Shown here in pieces: positions 1 through 14,642 of a DNA stretch of 64,000 nt. The stretch lies in assembly GCF_017068395.1 (NCBI RefSeq), contig NZ_CP070619.1, positions 5,890,001-5,954,000 of the forward strand, written 5' to 3'. The translations under genes and the position numbers were made by a program. Positions within the stretch are counted from its first letter, which is position 1, and every line of letters starts with the position of its first letter. A model generated the notes under the pieces. It saw only the letters and a list, made by a program, of their open reading frames with translations, did not search any database and was not told where the DNA came from. Source of the DNA: Rhodococcus pseudokoreensis (GTDB lineage Bacteria; Actinomycetota; Actinomycetes; Mycobacteriales; Mycobacteriaceae).

Positions 1-1
1 C

Positions 2-814
2 ACCGTCGTCAGGCACGCACTGGAGGGGGGAGCCCGCGAGATCATCGTCGGTCTCGGGGGCAGCGCGTCAACCGACGGCGGTGCCGGCTTGTTGCAGGCT
101 CTCGGCGTGCGTGTTCTCGACGCCGACGGCAGGGACGTCGCACCGGGCGGGGCGGCACTGCGCCACGCCGCCCGGGTCGACCTCACCGGCCTGCACCCGG
201 CGGCGCGGGCGGCGCATTTCCGGCTCGCCTGCGACGTCGACAACCCGCTCCTCGGCCCGAGCGGCGCCACCGCCGTGTACGCGGGCCAGAAGGGCGCGGC
301 GGCCGGACAATTCGTCGTTCTCGAGGACGCGATGACCCGGTGGGCGCAGGTCGTGCGCGCCGCGACGGGCCGTGACGACACCCGGGCCGCGGGGGCGGGC
401 GCCGCGGGCGGGGCGGCGTTCGGCGCGATCTCGGTTCTGGGTGCGGACATCCGGCCCGGCATCGACACGGTCCTCGGTCTCGTCGACTTCCGCGGGCGGC
501 TCGCCGCCGCCGACCTCGTCATCACCGGCGAGGGGTCGCTGGACGCGCAGAGCCTGCACGGCAAGGCCCCGATCGGCGTCGCGACCGAGGCGCGGGCGGC
601 GGGACTTCCCGTCCTCGCCGTCTGCGGTCGAAACCAGCTCAGCGACATGCAATTACACAGCTCCGGCATCTCCGCGGCCTACGCGCTCGCGGACCTGGAA
701 CCGGACCTTCACCGATCGATCGGACATGCCGCGGAACTCCTGCGCCGGATCGGCCGCACGATCGCCGCATCGTCCGACGAACTCGCAACACTCAGCACAC
801 GAGGAGAATCATGA
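2..814 (+). CDS. glxK: glycerate kinase (5' partial)
   Basis: C-terminal 270 codons of a glycerate kinase; the start lies upstream of the window. Reading frame 2 opens with a glycine-rich GLGGSASTDGG motif typical of the GlxK/GarK fold, followed by a DVDNPLLGPSGA segment and a GEGSLDAQSLHGK segment, both strongly conserved in the family. The enzyme phosphorylates glycerate with ATP in the cytosol, the last step by which glyoxylate carboligase-derived tartronate semialdehyde enters glycolysis. The stop overlaps the allantoicase start (ATGA), so the two are translationally coupled, tying glycerate formation to ureide breakdown. Confidence 0.9.
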   Translation, partial: TVVRHALEGGAREIIVGLGGSASTDGGAGLLQALGVRVLDADGRDVAPGGAALRHAARVDLTGLHPAARAAHFRLACDVDNPLLGPSGATAVYAGQKGAAAGQFVVLEDAMTRWAQVVRAATGRDDTRAAGAGAAGGAAFGAISVLGADIRPGIDTVLGLVDFRGRLAAADLVITGEGSLDAQSLHGKAPIGVATEARAAGLPVLAVCGRNQLSDMQLHSSGISAAYALADLEPDLHRSIGHAAELLRRIGRTIAASSDELATLSTRGES

Positions 815-1866
815 CTTCCGATTTCACTGTCCTGCCCGACCTCGCCTCCCGAGCCCTCGGCGGGAGTGTCTCCGCCGCCAACGACGAACTGTTCGCCCAG
901 CGGGAGAACCTCATCAAGGCGGAGGCTCCGTTCTTCGATCCCGCGGACTTCGGGCACAAGGGCAAGGTCTACGACGGCTGGGAGACCCGTCGCCGCCGCG
1001 ACGACGGCCACGACTACGCGATCGTCCGCCTCGGTTCCGCCGGCATCATCCACGGCGTCGTCGTGGACACCGCGTACTTCAAGGGCAACTACCCGCCCTT
1101 CGTCTCCATCGAGGCGGCGTCGATCGAGGGCTACCCCTCCATCGAGGACGTCATGAAGGCCGACTGGCAGACCATCGTCGAGAAGTCCCCGGCCGAGGGA
1201 CACAAGGAGAACACGTATCCGGTCGCCGACCGGCACCGCTGGACGCACGTACGCCTCTCGATCTACCCCGACGGCGGCGTCGCGCGTCTGCGCGTACACG
1301 GTGAGGTCGTGCCCGACCCCCGGTTCCTGGACGGGACCGTGGACCTGCTGGCCGCGGAGAACGGTGGCCGCCTCGTCGGCTGCTCCGACGCGTTCTACGC
1401 CTCGCCCGCCAACATCATCCTTCCCGGCCGGGCCCGGAACATGGGGGAGGGCTGGGAGAACTCCCGGCGTCGCGGGGGCGGCAACGACTTCGCCGTGTTC
1501 TCGCTCGCCGCGGCGGGCCGTCCCCGGCACGTCGAGATCGACACCAGCTACTACGTGGGGAACGCGCCGGGCTGGGTGCGGCTGAGCACCGCCGACGCGC
1601 GCACCGCCGACATCGCGGACGAGGGCGCGTGGACCGAACTGCTGGCGCGCACCGCCGTGCAACCCGACACGCGGCACCGGTTCGTGCTGGACGCCGCCGC
1701 CGCGGCCACCCACCTGCGACTCGACGTCTACCCCGACGGTGGTCTGTCCCGGCTGCGGCTGTTCGGCGATCTCGACGAGACGGCACTGGCGGAGACGCGA
1801 CGCACCTGGTGGGACGCGCTTCCGCAGACCCATCAGGCGCTCGTCGCCGATCAGGCGCCCCGCTGA
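811..1866 (+). CDS. alc: allantoicase
   Basis: 351-residue protein made of two tandem allantoicase (jelly-roll) repeats, about residues 30-185 and 205-340. The repeats share visible landmarks: KVYDGWETRRRR with VVVDTAYFKGN in the first, and MGEGWENSRRRGG with VEIDTSYYVGN in the second. The enzyme hydrolyses allantoate to ureidoglycolate and urea in the cytosol. The ATG overlaps the glycerate kinase stop by 4 bp and sits behind GAGGAG. Malic enzyme follows after 44 bp. Length matches the bacterial family. The ureidoglycolate-cleaving enzyme expected next in the pathway is not in this window. Confidence 0.95.
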   Translation: MTSDFTVLPDLASRALGGSVSAANDELFAQRENLIKAEAPFFDPADFGHKGKVYDGWETRRRRDDGHDYAIVRLGSAGIIHGVVVDTAYFKGNYPPFVSIEAASIEGYPSIEDVMKADWQTIVEKSPAEGHKENTYPVADRHRWTHVRLSIYPDGGVARLRVHGEVVPDPRFLDGTVDLLAAENGGRLVGCSDAFYASPANIILPGRARNMGEGWENSRRRGGGNDFAVFSLAAAGRPRHVEIDTSYYVGNAPGWVRLSTADARTADIADEGAWTELLARTAVQPDTRHRFVLDAAAAATHLRLDVYPDGGLSRLRLFGDLDETALAETRRTWWDALPQTHQALVADQAPR

Positions 1867-1910
1867 CCGAGCGCACTCCCTACTCCTTCGACGAACCCGA
1901 GGAAACACCC

Positions 1911-3300
<1,390 letters not shown>

Positions 3301-3308
<8 letters not shown>

Positions 3309-4644
3309 TCCGCTCGATCTGCTGTTCCGCGCCCCGCGGGTGATCACCGCGGCGGGGGAGGTCGCGCGCAGCGTGGGCGTGCGCGACGGCAGGATCGTCG
3401 TCATCGAACCGTTCGGTGCCCAACTCGACGCCGAGGTCGTCGTCGAACTGGGCGACGACGAGGTGCTGATACCGGGTCTCGTCGATACCCACGTGCACGT
3501 CAACGAGCCGGGCCGCACCGAATGGGAGGGTTTCGCGAGCGCGACCCGAGCGGCGGCCGCAGGCGGCGTGACCACGATCGTCGACATGCCGCTCAACAGC
3601 ATCCCGCCGACCGTCGACGCCGCGGCGCTGGACGTCAAACGACGGGTCGCGTCCGATCAGGCGTACGTCGACGTCGGGTTCTGGGGTGGCGCCGTGCCGG
3701 GCAACGTCCCGGACCTGCGTGCCCTGCACGACGCGGGCGTGTTCGGGTTCAAGTGCTTCCTGCTGCACTCCGGCGTCGACGAGTTCCCGCCGTTGGATCC
3801 GGCGGAGCTCGAACTGGCGCTGAAGGAGATCGCGAGTTTCGGCGCGATGATGATCGTGCATGCGGAGGACGCACACGCGATCGACCGCGCGACGTCACCG
3901 GGCGGCGAGAACTATGCCGACTTCCTCGACTCGCGGCCGCGGGGCGCCGAGAATCTCGCCATCGCGGAGGTCATCGAGCTGGCGCGGTGGACCGGGTGCC
4001 GGGTGCACATCCTGCACCTGTCCAGCTCCGACGCGCTGCCGATGATCGCGTCGGCCCGCAAGGACGGCGTGAAACTCACGGTGGAGACGTGCCCGCACTA
4101 CCTGTCGTTCGTCTCCGAGGAAATCCCCTCGGGAGCAACGCAATTCAAATGCTGCCCACCGATCCGTGAGGCCGGGAACCGGGAACTGCTGTGGCAGGGC
4201 CTCGCCGACGGCGTGATCGACTGCGTCGTCACCGACCACTCCCCGTGCACGGTCGACCTCAAACGATTCGACATCGGCGACTTCGGTGTCGCGTGGGGCG
4301 GCATCGCCTCGCTGCAGGTGTCGCTGTCCGCGGTGTGGTCGGAGGCCAAGCGGCGGGGACACAGCCTCAACGACGTGGTCCGGTGGATGGCGGAGAACCC
4401 CGCCGAGCAGGTCGGGCTGAACACGAAAGGGCATATCGCGCTCGGGTACGCGGCGGACTTCGCGGTGTTCGCGCCGGAGGAGGCCTTCGTCGTCGACGTG
4501 GCCGCCCTGCAGCACAAGAATCCCGTCTCCGCGTACGACCGGCGTGCCCTCGCCGGCGTCGTGCGCAGTACCTGGCTGGCCGGAAAACGGATCGACCTCG
4601 ACGAGGCGCCCCGCGGACGGCTGCTCAGCCGCGGACTGGCCTGA
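3301..4644 (+). CDS. allB: allantoinase
   Basis: 447-residue amidohydrolase that opens allantoin to allantoate. Metal-binding features are visible: [11 protein letters not shown] (His64, His66), the FKCFLLHSG lysine near residue 150 that would be carboxylated, [16 protein letters not shown] and the late VVTDHSPC aspartate. This arrangement is the allantoinase/dihydropyrimidinase type, and the neighbours (allantoicase, ureide permease, racemase) settle the substrate. The ATG at 3301 overlaps the end of the malic enzyme gene by 8 bp. An upstream in-frame extension to 3100 lies wholly inside malic enzyme and was rejected. Confidence 0.95.
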
Positions 4645-4675
4645 CCCTGCCGCGACCCCGCCCGTTGCCGCACTG

Positions 4676-4689
4676 GAATCGAAATATTC
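4676..4689. promoter_or_regulatory. weak dyad GAAT-N6-ATTC before ureide permease gene
   Basis: The 150-bp gap between allB and the NCS1 transporter gene contains GAAT-cgaaat-ATTC, centred about 110 bp before the chosen start. It is the only obvious dyad in the gap and could be an operator for a ureide-responsive regulator. The arms are only 4 bp, so chance occurrence is quite possible. Confidence 0.25.
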
Positions 4690-4794
4690 AGTGCGACAGC
4701 GGGTTTGTCGTGTTCGAGGCGGTGCGCGACCAAGATATATCCTGCGGAAATCATTGACCGGCCACTGTTGCCTGGCTCACACTTGGAGGGACCA

Positions 4795-6375
4795 ATGGAA
4801 CAAGCTTTCCGTGATACGGAAGTTCGTTCGCCGCCACGCAAGGACAGGCACATGCTCATAGACGACACAGTCTCGCGGCACACCACCACCGTCGACCACA
4901 CTGCCGCCGCCGGCCGTCACACGACGACGAGTCCGAAGCTCTACAACGCGGACCTGGCACCGACGAAGGCCGCAGGCCGTCGCTGGGGTTCCTACAGCAT
5001 CTTCACGCTGTGGACCAACGACGTACACAACATCGCCAACTACTCGTTCGCCATCGGCCTGTTCGCACTCGGGCTCGGCGGCGGCCACATGATCCTGTCG
5101 CTCATGATCGGCGCGGTCATCGTCTGCGTCGCCATGACCTACGCCGGATTCATGGGGCAGAAGACGGGCGTGCCCTTTCCCGTGATGAGCCGGATCAGCT
5201 TCGGCATCCGCGGCGCCCAGATACCGGCGGTCGTCCGCGCGATCATCGCGATCGTCTGGTTCGGAATCCAGACCTACCTCGCGTCGATCGTCTTCCGGAT
5301 CTTCCTCGTCGCGGTGGCCCCGTCCCTCGGCCGCTTCGACCAGAACTCGATCCTCGGACTGTCCAGCCTCGGATGGATCTGCTTCATCGGGATCTGGGCC
5401 ATTCAGATCGTCGTCCTCGTCTACGGGATGGAGGCCGTCCGCAAGTTCGAGAGCCTGGCGGGCCCGCTGATCCTGGTCACCGTCGGCTCCCTGGCACTGT
5501 GGATGCTGTTCCGCACCGACTTCTCCGTCGCCTGGGCATCCGACAAGCCCGCCTCGGGTGGGGAGATGTGGCGGCAGGTCTTCGCGGGCGCGGCCCTGTG
5601 GATGTCGATCTACGGCACCCTGATCCTCAACTTCTGCGACTTCTCGCGACGCTCCCCGTCCAAGACCGCCGTCGTGCGCGGCAACTTCTGGGGCCTGTTC
5701 GTCAACGTTCTCGCGTTCGCCGTCATCGCGTTCATCCTGTGCGGCGCCCAGTTCCAGATCGACGGGACGATCATCGACAGCCCCACCGACATCGTCGCGG
5801 CGATCCCGAACACCCTGTTCCTGTCGCTGGCCTGCCTCTCCCTCGTCATCGTCACGATGGCCGTCAACGTCATGGCGAACTTCGTCGCACCGTCGTACGT
5901 CCTGTCGAACCTCGCCCCCGAGAAGATCAGCTTCCGCAAGGCCGGCATCATCAGCGCCTGCATCGGCGTTGTCCTGCTGCCCTGGAACCTCTACGACAGC
6001 CCGGTGGTGATCAACTACTTTCTCGGTGGCCTCGGCGCCGTCCTCGGACCGCTGTTCGGCATCATCTTCGTCGACTACTGGTTCATCCGCCGCACGAAGG
6101 TCGACGTGCCCGCCCTCTACTCGGACAGCCCGACCGGAACCTACTACTACCGCAAGGGATTCAACCTGCGAGCGGTGTACGCCCTCGTACCCGCCGCCAC
6201 CGTCAGCACCCTGTTCGCGATCGTCCCCGCCTTCCATCTTTTCGCCCCCTTCTCGTGGTTCATCGGAGCGGGCCTGGCGGCAGCCATCTACGCCGTCGTC
6301 GGCGACCGCACCCGGCAGTACGTGGACGTCTCCGGCGAGTCGATCGCCGTGGACAGCGGCCACGGCGACCACTGA
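4795..6375 (+). CDS. NCS1-family allantoin/hydantoin permease
   Basis: 526-residue membrane transporter of the nucleobase:cation symporter-1 family, with about 12 hydrophobic segments. Family landmarks are visible: WTNDVHNIANYSFAIGLFALGLGG near TM1, the MTYAGFMGQKTGVPFPVMSRISFGIRG stretch around TM3 (shown in parts here: GVPFPVMSRISFG), and NFVAPSYVLSNLAP. Context (allB, alc, racemase) argues for allantoin as the imported substrate, with other ureides or hydantoins possible. The ATG at 4795 follows TTGGAGGGACCA; a second ATG at 4852 also has AAGGACAGG upstream and would remove a 19-residue polar N-terminus. Thirteen bases separate it from the racemase gene. Confidence 0.85.
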   Translation: MEQAFRDTEVRSPPRKDRHMLIDDTVSRHTTTVDHTAAAGRHTTTSPKLYNADLAPTKAAGRRWGSYSIFTLWTNDVHNIANYSFAIGLFALGLGGGHMILSLMIGAVIVCVAMTYAGFMGQKTGVPFPVMSRISFGIRGAQIPAVVRAIIAIVWFGIQTYLASIVFRIFLVAVAPSLGRFDQNSILGLSSLGWICFIGIWAIQIVVLVYGMEAVRKFESLAGPLILVTVGSLALWMLFRTDFSVAWASDKPASGGEMWRQVFAGAALWMSIYGTLILNFCDFSRRSPSKTAVVRGNFWGLFVNVLAFAVIAFILCGAQFQIDGTIIDSPTDIVAAIPNTLFLSLACLSLVIVTMAVNVMANFVAPSYVLSNLAPEKISFRKAGIISACIGVVLLPWNLYDSPVVINYFLGGLGAVLGPLFGIIFVDYWFIRRTKVDVPALYSDSPTGTYYYRKGFNLRAVYALVPAATVSTLFAIVPAFHLFAPFSWFIGAGLAAAIYAVVGDRTRQYVDVSGESIAVDSGHGDH

Positions 6376-6387
6376 CAGGAGATTTCG

Positions 6388-7113
6388 ATGCGCATTCTCG
6401 TCGTCAACGTCAACACCACCACGTCCATCACGGACGCCATCGCCAAGCAGGCCGAGGCCGCGGCAGCACCCGGAACCGAGATCGTCGGGCTCACACCGGA
6501 GATCGGTGCCGAATCCGTCGAAGGGAACTTCGAGAGCTATCTCGCCGCGATCGCGGTGATGGACCGGGTGCGGTCGTACCCCGAACCCTACGACGCGGTG
6601 ATCCAGGCCGGATACGGCGAACACGGCCGGGAGGGTCTGCAGGAACTGCTCGACGTACCCGTCGTCGACATCACCGAGGCCTCCGCGAGCATCGCGATGA
6701 TGCTGGGGCACAAGTACTCCGTGGTCACCACCCTCGACCGCACCGTCCCGCTCATCGAAGACCGGCTCCGCCTCGCCGGCCTCGACACCAAGTGCGCGAG
6801 CGTGCGTGCCAGCGGTCTGCCCGTCCTCGCACTGGAAACCGACCCCGAACGCACGATCGAGGCGATCGTCGACGAGGCCGAAGCGGCCGTGCGCGAAGAC
6901 AAGGCCGAGGTGATCTGCCTCGGCTGCGGCGGCATGGCCGGACTCGACGACCGAATCCGCGAACGCACCGGCGTGCCGGTGGTCGACGGAGTCAGTGCCG
7001 CTGTGAAATTGGCGGAATCTCTTGTAGGGTTGGGACTCTCGACCTCGAAGGTGCGCACGTACGCGCCCCCGCGCCCCAAGCGGATCACGGGATGGCCGCT
7101 CGCGAAGCCCTAA
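6388..7113 (+). CDS. Asp/Glu-hydantoin racemase family protein, likely allantoin racemase
   Basis: 241 residues. The N-terminus ILVVNVNTTTSITDAI and the C-terminal LGCGGMAGL place it in the hydantoin/allantoin racemase family, which interconverts the two enantiomers so that stereospecific allantoinase can use all substrate. The motif around the second catalytic cysteine (CLGCGGM) is present. At the position of the usual first cysteine (ACFGDPG in hydantoin racemases) this protein has AGYGEHG, so that Cys is missing. It follows the permease by 13 bp with AGGAGATTTCG as ribosome binding site. Function is inferred mainly from context. Confidence 0.75.
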   Translation: MRILVVNVNTTTSITDAIAKQAEAAAAPGTEIVGLTPEIGAESVEGNFESYLAAIAVMDRVRSYPEPYDAVIQAGYGEHGREGLQELLDVPVVDITEASASIAMMLGHKYSVVTTLDRTVPLIEDRLRLAGLDTKCASVRASGLPVLALETDPERTIEAIVDEAEAAVREDKAEVICLGCGGMAGLDDRIRERTGVPVVDGVSAAVKLAESLVGLGLSTSKVRTYAPPRPKRITGWPLAKP

Positions 7114-7173
7114 TCATGCACACCGCCCTCACCCCGGGCAGACACCCAGGCGCCCGACCCCGCGCCCGCAACG

Positions 7174-10047
7174 ATGGAGTATCCCTTGCTCGAACAGTCC
7201 AGCACGTCCGCCGACCGCCCCCGCGCGGGCTCCCGCGTCATCCGTGAGGGTGTTGCGTCGTATCTGCCGGATATCGATCCGGATGAGACCACGGAGTGGT
7301 TGGAATCGTTCGATGGTTTGTTGGACCGGTCCGGTCCGACTCGTGCCCGGTATCTGATGTTGCGGATGCTCGAGCGGGCCGGGGAGAAGCACGTCGCGCT
7401 GCCGGCGTTGACGTCGACCGATTATGTGAACACCATCCCGACGGAGAACGAGCCGTGGTTCCCCGGTGATGAGGAGGTCGAGCGCCGGTACCGGGCGTTC
7501 ATCCGGTGGAACGCGGCGGTGATGGTGACCCGCGCGCAGCGCCCCGGGGTCGGTGTCGGTGGCCACATCTCGACGTACGCGTCGTCGGCGGCCCTGTACG
7601 AGGTGGGGTTCAACCACTTCTTCCGCGGCAAGGACCACCCCGGTGGCGGCGATCAGATCTTCATCCAGGGCCACGCCTCCCCCGGCATCTACGCCCGCGC
7701 CTTCCTGGAGGGGCGGATCCCGGCGGAGCGGATGGACGGGTTCCGGCAGGAACACTCGCACGCCGACCAGGGCGGCGGGCTGCCGTCGTACCCGCACCCC
7801 CGCCTGCTCCCGGATTTCTGGGAGTTCCCGACCGTGTCGATGGGGTTGGGCCCGATGAACGCGATCTACCAGGCCCGGTTCAACCACTACCTGCACGACC
7901 GTGGCATCAAGGACACCGCCGACCAGCACGTGTGGGCGTTTTTGGGTGACGGCGAGATGGACGAACCCGAATCCCGCGGTCTCGCACATGTGGCGGCCAC
8001 CGAAGGCCTCGACAATTTGACGTTCGTGGTGAACTGCAACCTGCAGCGCCTCGACGGCCCGGTCCGCGGCAACGGCAAGATCATCCAGGAGTTGGAGTCG
8101 TTCTTCCGCGGCGCCGGCTGGAACGTGATCAAGGTGGTCTGGGGCCGCGAGTGGGACGCCCTGCTGCACGCGGACCGCGACGGTGCCCTGGTGAACCTGA
8201 TGAACGTCACCCCGGACGGGGACTACCAGACGTACAAGGCCAACGACGGCGGGTACGTGCGGGAGCACTTCTTCGGGAGGGACCCGCGGACCAAGGAACT
8301 GGTGGCGAACCTGTCCGATCAGGACATCTGGAACCTCAAACGCGGCGGCCACGACTACCGCAAGATCTACGCCGCCTACGCGGCGGCGATGGCGCACAAG
8401 GGTCAGCCGACGGTGATCCTGGCGCACACCATCAAGGGCTACACCCTGGGCAAGCACTTCGAGGGCCGCAACGCCACCCACCAGATGAAGAAGCTGACCC
8501 TCGACGATCTGAAGAATTTCCGGGATTTGCAGCGGATCCCGATCTCCGACGCCGAGTTGGAGAAGGACCCGAAGATGCCGCCGTACTACCACCCCGGCCC
8601 CGACGCCCCGGAGATCCAGTACATGCTGGACCGCCGCAAAGCCTTGGGTGGGTTCCTACCTGAGCGGCGGACCTCGCCGGCGCCGTTGCCGCAGCCGGCG
8701 GACTCCACCTACGACGTGGTCCGGAAGGGTTCCGGCAAGCAGCAGGTCGCGACCACCATGGCGTTGGTGCGGATCATGAAGGAGCTGCTGCGGGACAAGG
8801 AGATCGGGAAGCGGATCGTGCCGATCATCCCGGACGAGGCCCGCACCTTCGGGATGGACTCCTGGTTCCCCTCGCTCAAGATCTACAACCGCAACGGGCA
8901 GCTGTACACCGCGGTGGATGCGGAGCTGATGCTGGCGTACAAGGAGTCCGAGATCGGGCAGATCCTGCACGAGGGCATCAACGAGGCCGGCTCGACGGCC
9001 TCGTTCACCGCGGTCGGTACCTCCTACGCCACCCACGGTGAGCCGATGATCCCGCTGTACATCTTCTACTCGATGTTCGGGTTCCAGCGCACCGGCGACG
9101 GCCTGTGGGCGGCCGCGGATCAGATGGCCCGCGGCTTCGTGCTCGGTGCCACCGCCGGCCGCACCACCCTCACCGGCGAAGGGTTGCAGCACGCCGACGG
9201 GCACTCGCTGCTGCTGGCCTCGACCAACCCCGCCGCGGTGGCCTACGATCCGGCGTTCTCCTACGAGATCGCGCACATCGTCAAGGACGGACTGCGCCGC
9301 ATGTACGGCGGCACCGAGGGTGTGGACGGGTTCGGTGGTGAGGACATCTTCTACTACATCACCCTCTACAACGAGCCCTACTCCCAGCCCGCCGAACCGG
9401 AGAACCTGAACGTCGAGGGCCTCCTCAAGGGCATGTACCTGTTCAAGAAGTCCGCGGCATCGGGCAGCTCCGCCCCATTGAACGGGCACTCCGCAGGCTC
9501 CGCGCAGTCCAACGGGCATTCCGCAGGCTCCACGCCCAGGGCCCAGATCCTGGTCTCCGGTGTCACCATGCCCGAGGGTCTGCGGGCGCAGGAACTGCTC
9601 GCCGACGAGTGGGGTGTGGCCGCCGACGTGTGGTCGGTCACCTCCTGGGGTGAACTGCGCCGCGAGGGCATCGAACGCGAACAGCAGGCGCTGCGGGATC
9701 CGGGCACCGACGCCCCGCTGCCGTATGTCACCCAGGCGCTGTCGGATGCGGCCGGCCCGTTCGTGGCGGCGTCGGACTGGATGCGCGCCGTCGCCGACCA
9801 GATCCGCCAGTGGGTGCCCGGGTCGTACACCACCCTCGGCACCGACGGGTTCGGGTTCTCCGACACCCGCCCCGCCGCCCGCCGGTACTTCAACGTCGAC
9901 GCCGAATCCATCGTCGTCGCCGTCCTGTCCGCCCTCGCCGGCGAAGGCACCCTCGACCGCTCCAAGGCCGTCGAAGCCGCCACGAAGTACCGCATCGACG
10001 ACGTCCGCGCCGCCGCCGTCTCCTACGCCGACACCGGCAGCGCCTAG
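7174..10047 (+). CDS. aceE: pyruvate dehydrogenase E1 component, homodimeric type
   Basis: 957 residues, slightly longer than the roughly 910-930 usual for actinobacterial AceE. It converts pyruvate with ThDP to an acetyl group for the lipoyl domain of E2. The ThDP region [14 protein letters not shown] is near residues 250-263, and [22 protein letters not shown] and [20 protein letters not shown] are characteristic. Extra length comes partly from a low-complexity linker around residues 765-790 containing a duplicated NGHSAGS unit. The ATG at 7174 has no clear Shine-Dalgarno sequence; a TTG at 7186 is an alternative. Its place between ureide genes and pyruvate kinase/malate synthase is unusual for aceE and suggests a pathway-dedicated copy. 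Confidence 0.93.
9481..9540 (+). repeat. 30-bp tandem repeat inside aceE
   Basis: Two adjacent 30-bp units, 9481-9510 and 9511-9540, encode [10 protein letters not shown] and [10 protein letters not shown]. The first 19 bases differ at one position only. The unit adds a flexible Ser/Gly/Asn linker in the C-terminal part of the E1 protein without breaking the frame. Confidence 0.85.
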
Positions 10048-10065
10048 AACGGAATCGAAAATCCT

Positions 10066-11538
10066 ATGACAGCAACAGTTTCCGAAGATATCCTGGTGGT
10101 CGGCCGGCAGGGCACTGCGTCGGCCCGGCGCGCGAAGATCGTCTGCACCCTCGGGCCCGCGACGGCCACCGGCGATCGCATCCGCGAACTCGTCGACTGT
10201 GGAATGGACATCGCCCGGCTCAACTTCAGCCACGGCGACCATACCGATCACGAAGCGAACTACCACCGGGTGCGCGACGCATCCGGTTGCACCGGCCGGG
10301 CGGTGGGCATCCTCGCCGACCTCCAGGGGCCCAAGATCAGGTTGGGGCGCTTCGCGGAAGGCCGCACCGTCTGGGCCGACGGCGACGTCGTGCGGATCAC
10401 CGTCGACGAATGCGAGGGCACTCACGACCGCGTGTCGACCACCTACAAGCAGTTGGCCGAGGACGCCAGGCCGGGCGACCGGTTGCTCGTCGACGACGGC
10501 AAGATCGGACTGATAGTCACCGGCGTCGACGGCAACGACGTGGTGTGCCGGGTCACCGAGGGCGGTCCGGTCAGCAACAACAAGGGGGTGTCGCTGCCGG
10601 GGATGGACGTGTCCGTTCCGGCCCTGTCGGACAAGGACATCGCCGACCTCGAGTTCGCACTGCGTCTCGGTGTCGACCTCATCGCCCTGTCGTTCGTGCG
10701 GTCGGCGGCCGACATCGAACTCGTCCATGCCGTGATGGACCGGGTCGGCCGCAGGGTCCCCGTGATCGCGAAACTCGAGAAACCGGAGGCCATCGACAAC
10801 CTCGACGCGATCGTGCTCGCATTCGATGCGGTGATGGTCGCCCGCGGCGACCTGGGCGTCGAACTGCCCCTCGAACAGGTGCCGCTCGCGCAGAAGCGAG
10901 CCATCCAGGTCGCCCGCGAGAACGCGAAACCCGTGATCGTCGCGACGCAGATGCTGGAATCGATGATCGAGAATTCGCGGCCGACCCGCGCCGAGGCGTC
11001 CGACGTGGCCAATGCCGTTCTCGACGGTGCCGACGCAGTGATGCTGTCGGGCGAAACTTCCGTCGGCAAGCATGTGATGGAGACGGTCCGCACCATGGGC
11101 CGCATCATCAGCGCGGTGGAGGAGAAGTCCACGCACGTTCCGCCGCTGGGGCACGTGCCGCGCACGAAGGGCGGGGTCCTGTCCTACGCGGCCCGCGACA
11201 TCGGGGAACGATTGGGCGCCGCGGCCCTCGTCGCGTTCACCCAGTCGGGCGACACGGTGCGCCGGATGGCGCGCCTGCACACACCGTTGCCGTTGCTGGC
11301 GTTCACCCCGCTCCCGGAAGTGCGTGCTCAACTCGCGCTGACGTGGGGGACCGAGACGTTCCTCGTCGACCCCGTCGCATCGACCGACGAGATGATCCAC
11401 CAGGTCGACCACGCGCTCCTCGGCCTGGGCCGGTACCAGCGGGGCGATCTGGTCGTCATCGTCGCGGGATCGCCGCCGGGCACCATCGGCTCGACCAACC
11501 TGATCCACGTCCACCGAATCGGCGAGGAAGACCACTGA
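10066..11538 (+). CDS. pyk: pyruvate kinase
   Basis: 490 residues, the usual length. It transfers phosphate from phosphoenolpyruvate to ADP. Visible signatures: RRAKIVCTLGPAT at the N-terminus, DIARLNFSHG, ADLQGPKIRLG, the active-site segment VIAKLEKPEAIDNLD, MVARGDLGVELP and KPVIVATQMLESMIENSRPTRAE, with the regulatory C-domain beginning near residue 350. It starts 18 bp after aceE. With glycerate kinase at the other end of the cluster, it closes the lower-glycolytic route from glycerate to pyruvate. Whether it is the only pyruvate kinase of the cell cannot be seen here. Confidence 0.95.
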   Translation: MTATVSEDILVVGRQGTASARRAKIVCTLGPATATGDRIRELVDCGMDIARLNFSHGDHTDHEANYHRVRDASGCTGRAVGILADLQGPKIRLGRFAEGRTVWADGDVVRITVDECEGTHDRVSTTYKQLAEDARPGDRLLVDDGKIGLIVTGVDGNDVVCRVTEGGPVSNNKGVSLPGMDVSVPALSDKDIADLEFALRLGVDLIALSFVRSAADIELVHAVMDRVGRRVPVIAKLEKPEAIDNLDAIVLAFDAVMVARGDLGVELPLEQVPLAQKRAIQVARENAKPVIVATQMLESMIENSRPTRAEASDVANAVLDGADAVMLSGETSVGKHVMETVRTMGRIISAVEEKSTHVPPLGHVPRTKGGVLSYAARDIGERLGAAALVAFTQSGDTVRRMARLHTPLPLLAFTPLPEVRAQLALTWGTETFLVDPVASTDEMIHQVDHALLGLGRYQRGDLVVIVAGSPPGTIGSTNLIHVHRIGEEDH

Positions 11539-11613
11539 ACGGATGTGAAGTTGTAACCGTACGGCCGTCCGCTATTGACAGAACTCGATGGACACGGTTT
11601 TCTCTATGTCAAG

Positions 11614-11635
11614 ATACGAAACTGTGTTTTCGCAT
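11614..11635. promoter_or_regulatory. dyad ATnCGAAA-N6-TTTCGnAT upstream of glcB
   Basis: The gap between pyk and glcB contains a good inverted repeat: ATACGAAA, six bases, TTTCGCAT. It lies 38 bp before the malate synthase start codon, a position suited to an operator. The cognate regulator is not identifiable from the window. Separate regulation of glcB from the upstream genes is plausible. Confidence 0.4.
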
Positions 11636-11673
11636 CGTGGAAGTTTTGCCAAGTGCGGAAGGTGAGTCATTTC

Positions 11674-13854
11674 ATGACTGAGCGTGTTGAGGTCGGCGGT
11701 CTGCAGGTCGCGAAGGTGCTCTACGACTTCGTGAACGAGGAGGCGTTGCCGGGGACTGGGATCGACGTCGACGGTTTCTGGTCGGGTGCGGTGAAGGTGT
11801 TCGAGGACCTGGCGCCGAAGAACCGGGCCCTGCTCGCCACCCGCGACGAGCTGCAGGCGCAGATCGACCGCTGGCACCGCGACCACACCGGCACCCCCGA
11901 CCCGGCCGAGTACCGGCAGTTCCTGGCCTCGATCGGCTACCTGGTGCCCGCCCCGGCCCCGTTCGAGGTGTCCACGGCGAACGTGGACACCGAGATCACC
12001 TCGACCGCCGGCCCGCAGCTGGTGGTCCCGGTCCTCAACGCCCGCTTCGCCCTGAACGCGTCCAACGCCCGCTGGGGGTCGCTGTACGACGCCCTGTACG
12101 GCACCAACGCCATCGGTGAGGACGGCGGCGCGCAGCCGGGCACCTCCTACAACAAGGTCCGCGGCGACAAGGTCATCGCCTGGGCCCGCACCTTCCTCGA
12201 CACCGCCGCCCCCCTCACCGGCGGCTCGCACGCCGACGCCACCGGCTACCGCGTCGACGGGGACACCCTGCGGGTGGAGTTGGCGGACGGCACCGTCACC
12301 GCCCTGGCCGACCCCGGCAAGTTCGTCGGCTACCTCGGCGACCCGGCCACCCCCACCAGCGTGCTGCTGCGCAACCACGGCCTGCACGCCGACATCCAGA
12401 TCGACCCCACCTCCCCGATCGGCCAGACGGACCGGGCCGGGATCAAGGACGTCGTCCTCGAATCCGCGGTCACCACCATCATGGACTTCGAGGACTCCGT
12501 CGCCGCCGTCGACGCCGACGACAAGGTCATCGGCTACCGCAACTGGCTGGGCCTGAACCGCGGTGACCTGACCGAGGAGCTGACCAAGGACGGGAAGGCG
12601 TTCACCCGCCGGCTGAACCCGGACCGCACCTACACCGCCCCCGACGGCACCGACCTGACGTTGCACGGGCGGTCGCTGCTGTTCGTCCGCAACGTCGGGC
12701 ACCTGATGACCACCCCGGCGATCCTGCACCCGGACGGCACCGAGGTCCCCGAGGGCATCCTCGACGCCCTGCTCACCTCCCTCTGCGCCATCCACGGCCT
12801 CACCCGGTCGGAGGCGTCGGGGCCGCTGGACAACTCCCGCACCGGATCGATCTACATCGTCAAACCCAAACAGCACGGCCCCGACGAGGTCGCGTTCACC
12901 ACCGAACTGTTCGGCCGCGTCGAACAGGTCCTGAACCTGCCCGCCAACACGTTGAAGGTGGGGATCATGGACGAGGAACGGCGCACCACCGTCAACCTCG
13001 CCGCCTGCATCCACGAAGCCGCCGAGCGGGTGGTGTTCATCAACACCGGGTTCCTCGACCGCACCGGCGACGAGATCCACACCTCGATGGAGGCCGGGGC
13101 GATGATCCGCAAGGCCGCCATGAAGCAGCAGACCTGGATCACCGCCTACGAGGACTGGAACGTCGATGTCGGACTGGCCGCCGGCCTGCAGGGGAAGGCG
13201 CAGATCGGCAAGGGCATGTGGGCGATGACCGAACTGATGGCCGAGATGCTCGAGCAGAAGATCGGCCACCCGAAGGCCGGCGCGAACACCGCGTGGGTGC
13301 CGTCCCCGACCGGGGCCACCCTGCACGCCACCCACTACCACCAGGTCGACGTGTTCGCCGTCCAGGACCGGCTCAAGGGGGCGCCGCGGGCCACCCTCGA
13401 GCAGATCCTCACCATCCCCCTCGCCCCGAACACCGACTGGACCGAGCAGCAGAAGCAGGGGGAACTCGACAACAACTGCCAGTCCATCCTCGGCTACGTG
13501 GTCCGGTGGATCGACGCCGGCGTCGGCTGCTCCAAGGTCCCCGACATCCACGACGTCGCGCTGATGGAGGACCGCGCCACCCTGCGCATCTCCAGCCAGT
13601 TGCTGGCGAACTGGATCCGGCACGATGTGGTGACCGCCGACCAGGTCGTCGCCTCGCTGCAGCGGATGGCGCCGGTGGTGGACCGGCAGAACGAGGGTGA
13701 TCCGACGTATCGGCCGCTGGCCCCGGACTTCGACACCAACATCGCGTTCCAGGCCGCGAAGGAACTCATCCTCGACGGCACCGCGCAGCCCTCCGGCTAC
13801 ACCGAACCGATCCTGCACCGCCGCCGCCGCGAATACAAAGCCGCCAACGCCTGA
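11674..13854 (+). CDS. glcB: malate synthase G
   Basis: 726 residues, the typical length of monomeric malate synthase G, which condenses glyoxylate with acetyl-CoA to malate. Typical segments are the N-terminal [21 protein letters not shown] region, [30 protein letters not shown] (catalytic-loop Asp/Glu), [14 protein letters not shown] and [16 protein letters not shown]. The ATG at 11674 has GGAAGGTGAG upstream; extension to 11575 is unsupported. It ends just before a palindromic repeat shared with convergent rskA. Here it would take glyoxylate from ureide breakdown, with acetyl-CoA from the upstream AceE, rather than only serving the glyoxylate shunt. Confidence 0.96.
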
Positions 13855-13858
13855 CCCC

Positions 13859-13904
13859 CACGTGAGTGGCAAAGCGTGCGGGAGCACACTTTGCCACTCA
13901 CGTG
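13859..13904. repeat. palindromic repeat family A, copy 1 (likely bidirectional terminator)
   Basis: Left arm CACGTGAGTGGCAAAGCGTG, loop CGGGAG, and a right arm matching the reverse complement at 19 of 20 positions. It sits between the convergent ends of glcB and rskA, 4 bp after the glcB stop and directly against the rskA stop. Related copies lie at 21627-21672 and 60648-60693. The position favours a transcription-stopping role, though there is no U-tract. Confidence 0.8.
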
Positions 13905-14642
13905 TCAGGTGAGGTTCACCGTCGCGAAGATGTCGCCCGTGGGCTGGGTGGAACCGCCGGGCGGTTCCACACTGAACCCGAGCGCCGTCGACTGATCGAT
14001 GTCGTTCACGACCGCGGTCGTCGACGGTGCCACGTCGTCGGCCTCCATGATCCCGGCGGACACCGGTTCGTGGGACGGCCCGAGCAGCCACATCTGATAG
14101 ACCGAACCGGGCTCGGGCGGTGGGACGTCGTTCATGACCAGCAGTCCGGCGTCGACGTCTTTGGAGTACACGACGGTCGCCGAACCGCCACCGGCGATCG
14201 GCGCTGCCGCCGTGCGAACGTCGTCGGCGGCGAGGATCTGCGCGGGCACGGGTTGGGTTTCGTCGCTCTGCAACTGCTGGGCGACGGTGATGCCACCGAC
14301 GGCGAGGACGATCACCGCGGCCGCCGCACTGAGAGCGCCGAGGAGACGCCTGCGTCTGCGGGCACGAACCTCGTCGAGAGCCACCGGCGCGGGTGCCGAG
14401 GCGGTGCCGGGCAGGGCTTCGAGGATGCGCCCGAGCAGGTAGTCGGGTGGGTCGACCGCGGTGGACGCGGACTGGGCGGCCATCGTCTCCTGCACCCCGC
14501 GCACAGCGTTGTCGAACTCCAGGCGAACATGCGGCGGTGCACTCTGGATCGCGGTGTCGATCTCGAGGCGCTGCTGATCGTCGACGGCGTCGAGTGCATA
14601 CACCTGAGCGAGGTCGAGGATGTCGTGCTGGGACTCATCCAT
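13905..14642 (-). CDS. rskA: anti-sigma-K factor
   Basis: 245-residue single-span membrane protein. The N-terminal anti-sigma domain (about 1-80, with LAQVYALDAVDDQQRLEID) is followed by an Arg-rich stop-transfer and a membrane span around 100-122, then an extracytoplasmic RskA domain (VYQMWLLGP, SVEPPGGSTQPTGDIFATVNL). It is expected to hold SigK inactive at the membrane until regulated proteolysis. Its start overlaps the sigK stop by 8 bp, the usual sigma/anti-sigma coupling. Gene order matches the mycobacterial sigK-rskA pair. Confidence 0.92.
   Translation of the reverse strand: MDESQHDILDLAQVYALDAVDDQQRLEIDTAIQSAPPHVRLEFDNAVRGVQETMAAQSASTAVDPPDYLLGRILEALPGTASAPAPVALDEVRARRRRRLLGALSAAAAVIVLAVGGITVAQQLQSDETQPVPAQILAADDVRTAAAPIAGGGSATVVYSKDVDAGLLVMNDVPPPEPGSVYQMWLLGPSHEPVSAGIMEADDVAPSTTAVVNDIDQSTALGFSVEPPGGSTQPTGDIFATVNLT

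What the first reader, a model, noticed from the sequence alone, without database searches (positions are those of the whole stretch)
2..13854. Allantoin catabolism fused with a complete glyoxylate-oxidising dicarboxylic acid cycle
On one strand, with small gaps or overlaps, lie allantoicase, allantoinase, ureide permease and racemase mixed with glycerate kinase, malic enzyme, pyruvate dehydrogenase E1, pyruvate kinase and malate synthase G. Malate synthase (glyoxylate + acetyl-CoA), malic enzyme (malate to pyruvate) and PDH (pyruvate to acetyl-CoA) together form a closed cycle that oxidises glyoxylate fully to CO2. Glycerate kinase and pyruvate kinase would refill acetyl-CoA by the glycerate route. 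Having malic enzyme inside the allantoinase/allantoicase pair argues that the central-carbon genes are pathway-specific copies. I know of the cycle from classical glyoxylate biochemistry but not of its packaging in a ureide operon.
Basis: partly seen in the sequence, partly recalled or inferred. Interest (0 to 1): 0.82.

Follow-up and report, generated by a model that had tools for sequence, protein, structure and literature searches.

The report
Allantoin regulon with built-in malate cycle
In a group of soil bacteria, the genes for eating allantoin sit with extra copies of central-metabolism genes that could burn its glyoxylate end-product completely, and two of those extra copies are kept nearly identical to the housekeeping originals by repeated gene copying within each genome.

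Summary
The gene content is real. Window 2-13854 is the distal part of a 20.4-kb cluster: iclR <-> dctA, phosphorylase, AH_C, hyi, glxR, gcl, glxK, allantoicase, malic enzyme, allantoinase, permease, allantoin racemase, aceE, pyk, malate synthase G (msg). The part upstream of the window completes the glycerate pathway. None of the four central-carbon genes is the genome's only copy. An operon-type cluster is found in 8 of 28 congeneric genomes (own included), with single-gene losses. Three transcription units are likelier than one: exact IclR-type operators precede two, a degenerate one the third.

The unexpected result: cluster aceE and msg are sisters of the housekeeping copy of the same genome (5 of 5 and 6 of 6 genomes tested; AU p 6.5e-102 and 5.5e-51). 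The neighbouring cluster pyk behaves as an ordinary orthologue, and cluster AceE keeps a private N-terminus and GHSAGS linker. This is recurrent gene conversion, which suggests selection for inducible dosage. The malate cycle, gcl-pyk operons and allantoin-induced glyoxylate use are known. aceE plus malic enzyme plus malate synthase in a ureide cluster, with concerted evolution, was not found in my searches. Expression, effector and flux are untested.

The parts
2..814 (+). glycerate kinase glxK (starts about 0.34 kb upstream of the window)
   Evidence: TIGR00045 376 bits on the full gene
811..1866 (+). allantoicase
   Evidence: TIGR02961 391 bits
1911..3308 (+). malic enzyme, 465 aa; residues 91-457 match short bacterial malic enzymes, with about 90 further N-terminal residues
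   Evidence: PF00390 and PF03949; 2a9f E 9.8e-124
3301..4644 (+). allantoinase AllB
   Evidence: TIGR03178 567 bits
4754..4821 (+). putative second promoter region: TTGACC, CRP-like TGTTGCCTGGCTCAC (4766) and exact operator TTCCGTGATACGGAA (4807-4821)
   Evidence: conserved in alignment; operator in the genus; positions; not flagged by the consensus promoter scan
4795..6375 (+). NCS1 allantoin-type permease (start could be 4852, behind the operator)
   Evidence: PF02133 above cut-off; NF008476 278 bits, below its cut-off of 620
6388..7113 (+). allantoin racemase
   Evidence: PF01177; 5lfd E 1.3e-120
7174..10047 (+). aceE, PDH E1, cluster copy with private N-terminus and GHSAGS-repeat linker; gene-converted with the copy at C6:7666995-7669745
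   Evidence: TIGR00759 1433 bits
10066..11538 (+). pyruvate kinase, cluster copy, ~80% nt identical to the other three copies, not converted
   Evidence: NF004886 758 bits
11575..11642 (+). putative third promoter region: TTGACA and degenerate operator TTTCGCATCGTGGAA (11628-11642), aligned with the iclR-msg promoter of G007/G014
   Evidence: alignments; not flagged by the consensus promoter scan
11674..13854 (+). malate synthase G, cluster copy; gene-converted with the copy at C6:7978084-7980261
   Evidence: NF002825 1263 bits

Best explanation
This is a glyoxylate/ureide catabolic regulon. Allantoin enters through the permease, is racemised, and is opened by allantoinase and allantoicase to urea and ureidoglycolate, which yields glyoxylate. 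Glyoxylate then has two exits. (a) Glycerate pathway: Gcl, Hyi, GlxR and GlxK give phosphoglycerate, which enolase (not in the cluster) and the cluster's Pyk convert to pyruvate. (b) Malate cycle: malate synthase G, malic enzyme and PDH oxidise glyoxylate to CO2 and regenerate acetyl-CoA. AceE alone is supplied because E2/E3 are shared housekeeping parts. An IclR-family repressor, probably relieved by glyoxylate, controls the units from operators of the TTCCRTRATAYGGAA type. The aceE and malate synthase copies serve as inducible extra dosage and exchange sequence with the housekeeping genes by recurrent gene conversion. Shown by sequence: gene content, conservation, operator conservation, gene conversion. 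Inferred: pathway flux, effector, repression, dosage as the selected trait.
For: Annotation with curated models and solved relatives. Operon-type allantoicase with malic enzyme beside it in 8 of 28 congeneric genomes (own included); alc-mae-aceE-pyk-msg complete in 4 of these 8. Malic enzyme together with malate synthase A also lies in the ureide/gcl loci of five other actinobacteria (L051-L054, L064). Two of the three other pyk copies of this genome lie within 0.6 kb of gcl (L257) or a glycerate kinase-like gene (L262). Operator: of 18 exact sites in 28 genomes, 14 are at dctA or the permease of this cluster (dctA in G005 and G009 placed by distance only), 2 lie before malate synthase G beside an 87-90% identical iclR, 1 before another hyi-glxR-gcl locus, 1 unassigned. 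Gene conversion: cluster/housekeeping nt identity within a genome aceE 98.0-99.5%, msg 97.8-99.9%, against 91.9-95.2% and 89.6-95.0% for cluster copies between these genomes; site patterns; trees and AU tests; pyk control; homology of the two copies ends at the gene edges while housekeeping flanks align between species.
Against: No expression or growth data. Single genes are missing or damaged in relatives (pyk absent in G009, aceE a remnant in G027, glxK damaged in G009 and G027, allB interrupted in G005), so the full set is not indispensable. No ureidoglycolate lyase of a known family was recognised among the cluster genes scanned. The operator before malate synthase is degenerate (3 mismatches; 7 sites with up to 3 mismatches in 78 kb). 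The consensus promoter scan flags neither internal promoter region and finds no excess over shuffles. The three Antrihabitans loci hold aceE-pyk but neither malic enzyme nor malate synthase, and in two of them (L030, L033) these genes do not group with the Rhodococcus cluster copies.
Confidence: 0.72

Rival explanations
1. The central-carbon genes serve general C2/C4 acid catabolism (malate or other dicarboxylates through dctA, ethylene glycol, glycolate), and allantoin is only one of several inputs.
For: dctA heads the cluster. The same IclR type and operator type accompany hyi-glxR-gcl loci on contig C5 (1-mismatch site) and at C6:3.25 Mb (exact site), where my cluster queries found no ureide gene in the stretches fetched, and malate synthase in G007/G014, which show no allantoicase at E 1e-50.
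Against: Allantoicase, malic enzyme and allantoinase are interleaved with gaps of 44 and -8 bp, and the permease and racemase lie in the same run as aceE-pyk.
Confidence: 0.4
2. The extra aceE and malate synthase are chance passengers: recent duplications or transpositions that happened to land here.
For: 98% nt identity to the housekeeping copies could be read as recent duplication.
Against: Same position in several species, no homology outside the genes, shared cluster-specific N-terminus and linker, shared cluster-type msg promoter, orthologous pyk between them. Independent insertion at one site in 5-6 lineages is implausible.
Confidence: 0.03
3. The cluster serves only detoxification and assimilation by the glycerate pathway; the malate-cycle genes have little flux, or malic enzyme and malate synthase work anaplerotically.
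For: P. aeruginosa uses a gcl cluster with pykF for allantoin carbon (PMC12694930), and in C. [quoted passage not shown]
Against: That would not explain adding an aceE copy and a malic enzyme and keeping aceE under purifying selection (11-51 synonymous against 3-7 non-synonymous codon differences between copies). Malate synthase is less clear-cut (1-20 against 0-14).
Confidence: 0.25

Closest known systems
gcl cluster PA1498-PA1502 of Pseudomonas aeruginosa, allantoin-inducible (PMC12694930; abstract and passages seen)
   Same: Glyoxylate carboligase, Hyi, GlxR and a second pyruvate kinase in one cluster serving allantoin carbon (glycerate kinase as PA1499 is recalled; the P. putida gcl operon with ttuD and pykF is in a legend of PMC11166783)
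   Different: 'Malic' and 'pyruvate dehydrogenase' do not occur in that paper, and malate synthase only as the separate glyoxylate-shunt enzyme or in a reference; other phylum
Malate cycle of Cupriavidus necator (malate synthase + malic enzyme + PDH; PMC7486775, passages seen); older name dicarboxylic acid cycle (recalled)
   Same: The same three enzymes, oxidising glyoxylate to CO2
   Different: Shown there as a route by genetics, not as a gene cluster in the passages seen; here dedicated copies sit with ureide genes
AllR/IclR regulons (E. coli AllR, glyoxylate effector: start of the abstract of PMC10163214 in a listing; Streptomyces AllR regulon with a malate synthase: recalled, not seen)
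   Same: IclR-family regulator beside allantoin and glyoxylate genes; short palindromic site with TTCC/GGAA ends
   Different: Best NCBIfam score is BhcR, 188 bits; all nine listed models are below their cut-offs; the site differs from the E. coli IclR and AllR motifs listed in PMC8222616 (passages)
Recurrent concerted evolution in prokaryotes (26 genes, among them tuf; PMC6053082, passages seen)
   Same: Paralogues in one genome more alike than orthologues, recurrently, in different contexts
   Different: aceE, pyruvate dehydrogenase and malate synthase do not occur in that paper's main text; here the pair is a housekeeping and a catabolic-cluster copy

Membership tests
Glycerate-pathway (gcl) operon | gcl, hyi, glxR and glycerate kinase contiguous | tested here: met
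   gaps 8-37 bp
Malate (dicarboxylic acid) cycle | malate synthase and malic enzyme encoded | tested here: met
Malate (dicarboxylic acid) cycle | complete PDH complex in the cluster | tested here: not met
   Only E1 (aceE) found among the cluster genes; E2/E3 must be supplied elsewhere (not searched for)
Malate (dicarboxylic acid) cycle | flux of glyoxylate carbon to CO2 by this route | not testable with these tools
   needs labelling and mutants
AllR/IclR-type regulon | IclR-family regulator gene at the cluster | tested here: met
   PF09339 and PF01614
AllR/IclR-type regulon | regulator is an AllR or IclR equivalog | tested here: not met
   AllR model 105 bits against cut-off 406; IclR 159 against 380
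AllR/IclR-type regulon | common operator before the transcription units | tested here: met
   exact at dctA and at the permease, each in 7 of 8 genomes; degenerate before msg in 6 of 6 aligned
AllR/IclR-type regulon | regulator binds it and responds to glyoxylate | not testable with these tools
   needs EMSA or reporter
Recurrent concerted evolution | same-genome paralogues closer than orthologues in several lineages | tested here: met
   aceE 5 of 5, msg 6 of 6 genomes with both copies resolved
Recurrent concerted evolution | duplication older than the lineages (shared position and private markers) | tested here: met

The most novel reading that the evidence does not exclude
A catabolic regulon carries its own inducible copies of central-metabolism genes whose coding sequences are continually refreshed from the housekeeping genome by gene conversion, while private promoters, N-terminus and a variable GHSAGS-repeat linker in AceE escape conversion. 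The linker then makes a specialised E1 that joins or leaves the shared PDH/ODH complex differently, steering pyruvate into a dedicated malate cycle during ureide growth.
Probability: 0.25. Interest if true: 0.78.

Novelty: new variant of a known kind. Interest (0 to 1): 0.6.

Why it matters
It gives a genomic case in which both exits of glyoxylate, assimilation and full oxidation, are tied to one substrate, and it makes an old biochemical idea testable with a few deletions. It also shows housekeeping and cluster copies of PDH E1 and malate synthase held nearly identical by repeated gene conversion while a neighbouring pyruvate kinase diverged. That helps separate selection for dosage from selection for new enzyme properties. 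Near-identical copies may also explain why assemblies break at these genes (the R. opacus ATCC 51881 contig ends 210 bp into aceE), so the arrangement is easily missed.

Tried and rejected
Recent duplication or transposition as the cause of the 98% identity was rejected. A single operon was set aside as unproven because two internal gaps hold conserved promoter-like sequence. The sigma-70 and terminator scan of 1-14200 was uninformative and partly against my reading: 1 promoter-like site against 0.8 expected, not at either internal gap, and 3 terminators against 5.6. An AllR-equivalog label for the regulator was rejected.

Literature: searches (161 papers, 20 listed; 1; 1; 1,061, 20 listed; 27, 20 listed; 32, 10 listed; concerted evolution; 19, 15 listed; 4; PDH/ODH complex; 1), 76 (49, 12 listed). 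No listed title or abstract start describes aceE, malic enzyme or malate synthase in an allantoin cluster. I opened six papers (passages or abstract only: PMC12694930, PMC7486775, PMC11166783, PMC6053082, PMC8222616, PMC7568260); the rest I saw as listings, and subscription papers are mostly missing. The R. jostii ethylene glycol paper was not held. Kornberg's dicarboxylic acid cycle and the Streptomyces AllR work are recalled.

Rows dropped: tblastn pieces under 35% of the query in the synteny table, so contig-end pieces such as aceE in L048 appear only. The allantoicase scan kept the best 80 of 136 confirmed stretches. In one search I took 17 aceE, 16 msg and 19 pyk sequences, not all matches; one search added four aceE sequences. 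G004 and G008 were left out of the conversion test because their copies lie at contig ends or were not resolved.
Full report
OBSERVATION. The window is bases 5890001-5954000 of contig C6 (8.73 Mb) of a 9.87-Mb genome in six contigs. The closest named allantoicase is that of Rhodococcus koreensis DSM 44498 (99%). Pfam and NCBIfam scans identify glycerate kinase (2-814, truncated by the window edge), allantoicase, malic enzyme, allantoinase, NCS1 permease, Asp/Glu/hydantoin racemase, homodimeric PDH E1 (aceE), pyruvate kinase and malate synthase G, all on the + strand. The racemase is closest to a solved allantoin racemase. Residues 91-457 of the 465-residue malic enzyme align with a short bacterial malic enzyme. 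AceE aligns with solved PDH E1 over residues 32-757 and 785-943, with an insert between.

SURROUNDINGS. Upstream, outside the window, lie gcl, glxR, hyi, a small AH_C-domain protein, a phosphorylase of the MTAP type and a dctA-type transporter, with a divergent IclR-family gene. Gaps in the series dctA to malate synthase are -17 to 60 bp except 150 bp before the permease and 135 bp before malate synthase. Downstream, rskA and sigK are convergent, so the cluster ends at 13854.

COPIES. The genome has two AceE proteins of this type (99% identical; three further matches are only 29-30% identical), four pyruvate kinases (the other three 87-88%), two malate synthases of this fold (98% identical) and four malic enzymes (the other three 54-56%). 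Two of the three other pyruvate kinase copies lie within 0.6 kb of a related gene: on contig C5 behind hyi-glxR-gcl, and at C6:5.23 Mb behind a 44% identical glycerate kinase. The third (L263) showed none of my cluster genes in 8 kb.

CONSERVATION. Of 28 congeneric genomes searched (own included), 8 have an operon-type allantoicase (>=92%) with the malic enzyme beside it. Cluster aceE is whole in 5, cut short at a contig end in G008, seen as a 3' part with pyk on a separate contig in G004, and a remnant in G027. Cluster-type pyk is present in 6 (in G004 on that separate contig), absent in G009 and unseen in G008. Cluster malate synthase is present in 6 and unseen in G004 and G008. Four (G000, G005, G006, G026) have all five of alc-mae-aceE-pyk-msg; in G005 the allantoinase gene is interrupted. 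Among the best 80 of 136 allantoicase stretches, aceE and pyk occur in 5: R. koreensis, R. wratislaviensis and three Antrihabitans. Malic enzyme occurs in 10: four Rhodococcus and six other actinobacteria (L051-L054, L058, L064: Cellulosimicrobium, Georgenia, Occultella, Cellulomonas). In five of those six a malate synthase A is also in the locus, beside the malic enzyme in Cellulosimicrobium and within 1 kb of allantoicase in Georgenia and Cellulomonas. Malate synthase A occurs in 13 of the 80 loci in all, and a 61% malate synthase G in one more, Dactylosporangium L089. So malate synthase, with or without malic enzyme, has joined ureide clusters elsewhere; aceE has not in the loci seen, except in Antrihabitans.

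ANTRIHABITANS. The three loci (L028, L030, L033) have aceE-pyk behind the ureide genes but no malic enzyme; their single malate synthase G is on another contig, and each genome has a second aceE. A. cavernicola (L028) shares the GHSAGS insert, and its pyk groups with the Rhodococcus cluster copies (90/85); its two aceE copies are sisters (100/100) but clearly diverged. The cluster genes of L030 and L033 group with each other and not with the Rhodococcus cluster copies, so they may have been gained separately.

REGULATION. The palindrome TTCCRTRATAYGGAA has 18 exact matches in the 28 genomes. Seven lie before dctA (five seen in alignment, G005 and G009 placed by distance) and seven at the start of the permease. 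In the eighth genome the permease site has one mismatch (G026), and G027 has a one-mismatch site 6.6 kb upstream of allantoicase that I did not examine. Two lie 33 bp before the single malate synthase G of G007 and G014. One lies before a second hyi-glxR-gcl locus (C6:3.25 Mb). One (C5:65372) is unassigned. With up to one mismatch there are 43 rows, against 8 for the reversed control pattern; the palindrome is counted on both strands. In G007 and G014, which show no allantoicase at E 1e-50, malate synthase is divergent from an IclR gene 90% and 87% identical to the cluster's. The cluster's malate synthase promoter holds a degenerate operator in six of six copies aligned and aligns with the G007/G014 promoter, while the housekeeping promoter does not resemble it. 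A CRP-like TGTGA-N6-TCAC site lies before dctA and a looser one before the permease. The consensus promoter scan flagged neither internal region. My reading is three units controlled by one IclR-type repressor; this is inference from sequence.

CONCERTED EVOLUTION. Nucleotide identity of cluster and housekeeping aceE within a genome is 98.0, 98.7, 99.5, 99.2 and 98.7% (G000, G006, G009, G005, G026), against 91.9-95.2% for cluster copies compared between these genomes. For malate synthase it is 98.3, 97.8, 99.8, 99.9, 98.8 and 99.6% (G027 added), against 89.6-95.0%. Sites at which the two copies of one genome agree against those of the other number 84-178 in aceE (10 genome pairs) and 64-222 in malate synthase (15 pairs). 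Sites at which like-positioned copies agree number 1-7 and 0-3. Maximum-likelihood trees pair the copies within each genome with bootstrap 97-100 in 5 of 5 (aceE) and 6 of 6 (msg) genomes. Holding the cluster copies together is rejected, p 6.5e-102 and 5.5e-51. Pyruvate kinase, between them, is the control: the six Rhodococcus cluster copies stand apart from ten other copies with 100/100 support, and cluster and other Rhodococcus copies are 79-84% identical. Homology between the two loci stops close to the gene edges, while the housekeeping loci align across their flanks between species. Cluster AceE keeps an N-terminus shared by 5 of 5 Rhodococcus cluster copies (only faintly in A. cavernicola) and a GHSAGS-repeat insert in those five and A. 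cavernicola. The insert is absent from 9 of 9 housekeeping copies and from 2 of 2 other Antrihabitans cluster copies aligned. The duplication is therefore older than the species, and the coding sequences have been homogenised repeatedly. Differences between the aceE copies are mostly synonymous (11-51 against 3-7 codons per genome); those of malate synthase less so (1-20 against 0-14).

MECHANISM. Glyoxylate needs acetyl-CoA to enter malate synthase. Malic enzyme and PDH return it, giving full oxidation; gcl, glycerate kinase and pyruvate kinase supply pyruvate and biomass. The same three-enzyme cycle is described as the malate cycle in Cupriavidus (passages of PMC7486775). [quoted passage not shown] The Rhodococcus cluster would solve exactly that. 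Only E1 of PDH is present. In Corynebacterium one E2-E3 core is reported to associate with both E1p and E1o, E1p more weakly (abstract of PMC7568260), so raising AceE alone could raise pyruvate oxidation. That step is inference.

LIMITS. No expression, growth or flux data. Single-gene losses in relatives show that the complete set is optional. No recognised ureidoglycolate lyase is among the cluster genes scanned.

Noticed in passing
L006:9614-10042 (about 4.4-4.0 kb before the window): A 142-aa AH_C/GGACT-like protein lies directly upstream of hyi, or of allantoicase where hyi is absent (L031, L037). It matches in 35 of 80 allantoicase loci; a candidate for the missing ureidoglycolate step.
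   Followed up: partly
L052:1912-3168, L051:3037-4743 and similar: DUF6986 (PF22484, weakly HpcH/HpaI-like) matches in 34 of 80 allantoicase loci, nearly complementary to the AH_C protein: 2 loci have both (L052, L058), 13 neither.
   Followed up: partly
G000:C5:52000-58000 (L257) and G000:C6:3253000-3259000 (L259): Two further hyi-glxR-gcl loci with iclR homologues (79% and 64%), the first with pyk and a one-mismatch operator, the second with an exact operator.
   Followed up: partly
G000:C6:7864013 and C6:5233634; G009:C5:766680 and C5:2905370: Non-cluster pyruvate kinase pairs are also 97.8% and 99.4% identical within a genome, perhaps another converting pair.
   Followed up: no
L194 (G005), L195 (G009), L196 (G027): Decay in relatives: allantoinase interrupted by about 1.8 kb (G005), internal loss in glycerate kinase (G009), remnants of glycerate kinase and aceE (G027).
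   Followed up: no
L264 (G000:C6:3370000-3384000): A second ureide locus with a 61% allantoicase, a PuuE-type allantoinase and a distant NCS1/racemase pair (36-37%); no central-carbon gene of the cluster matched in this 14 kb.
   Followed up: partly
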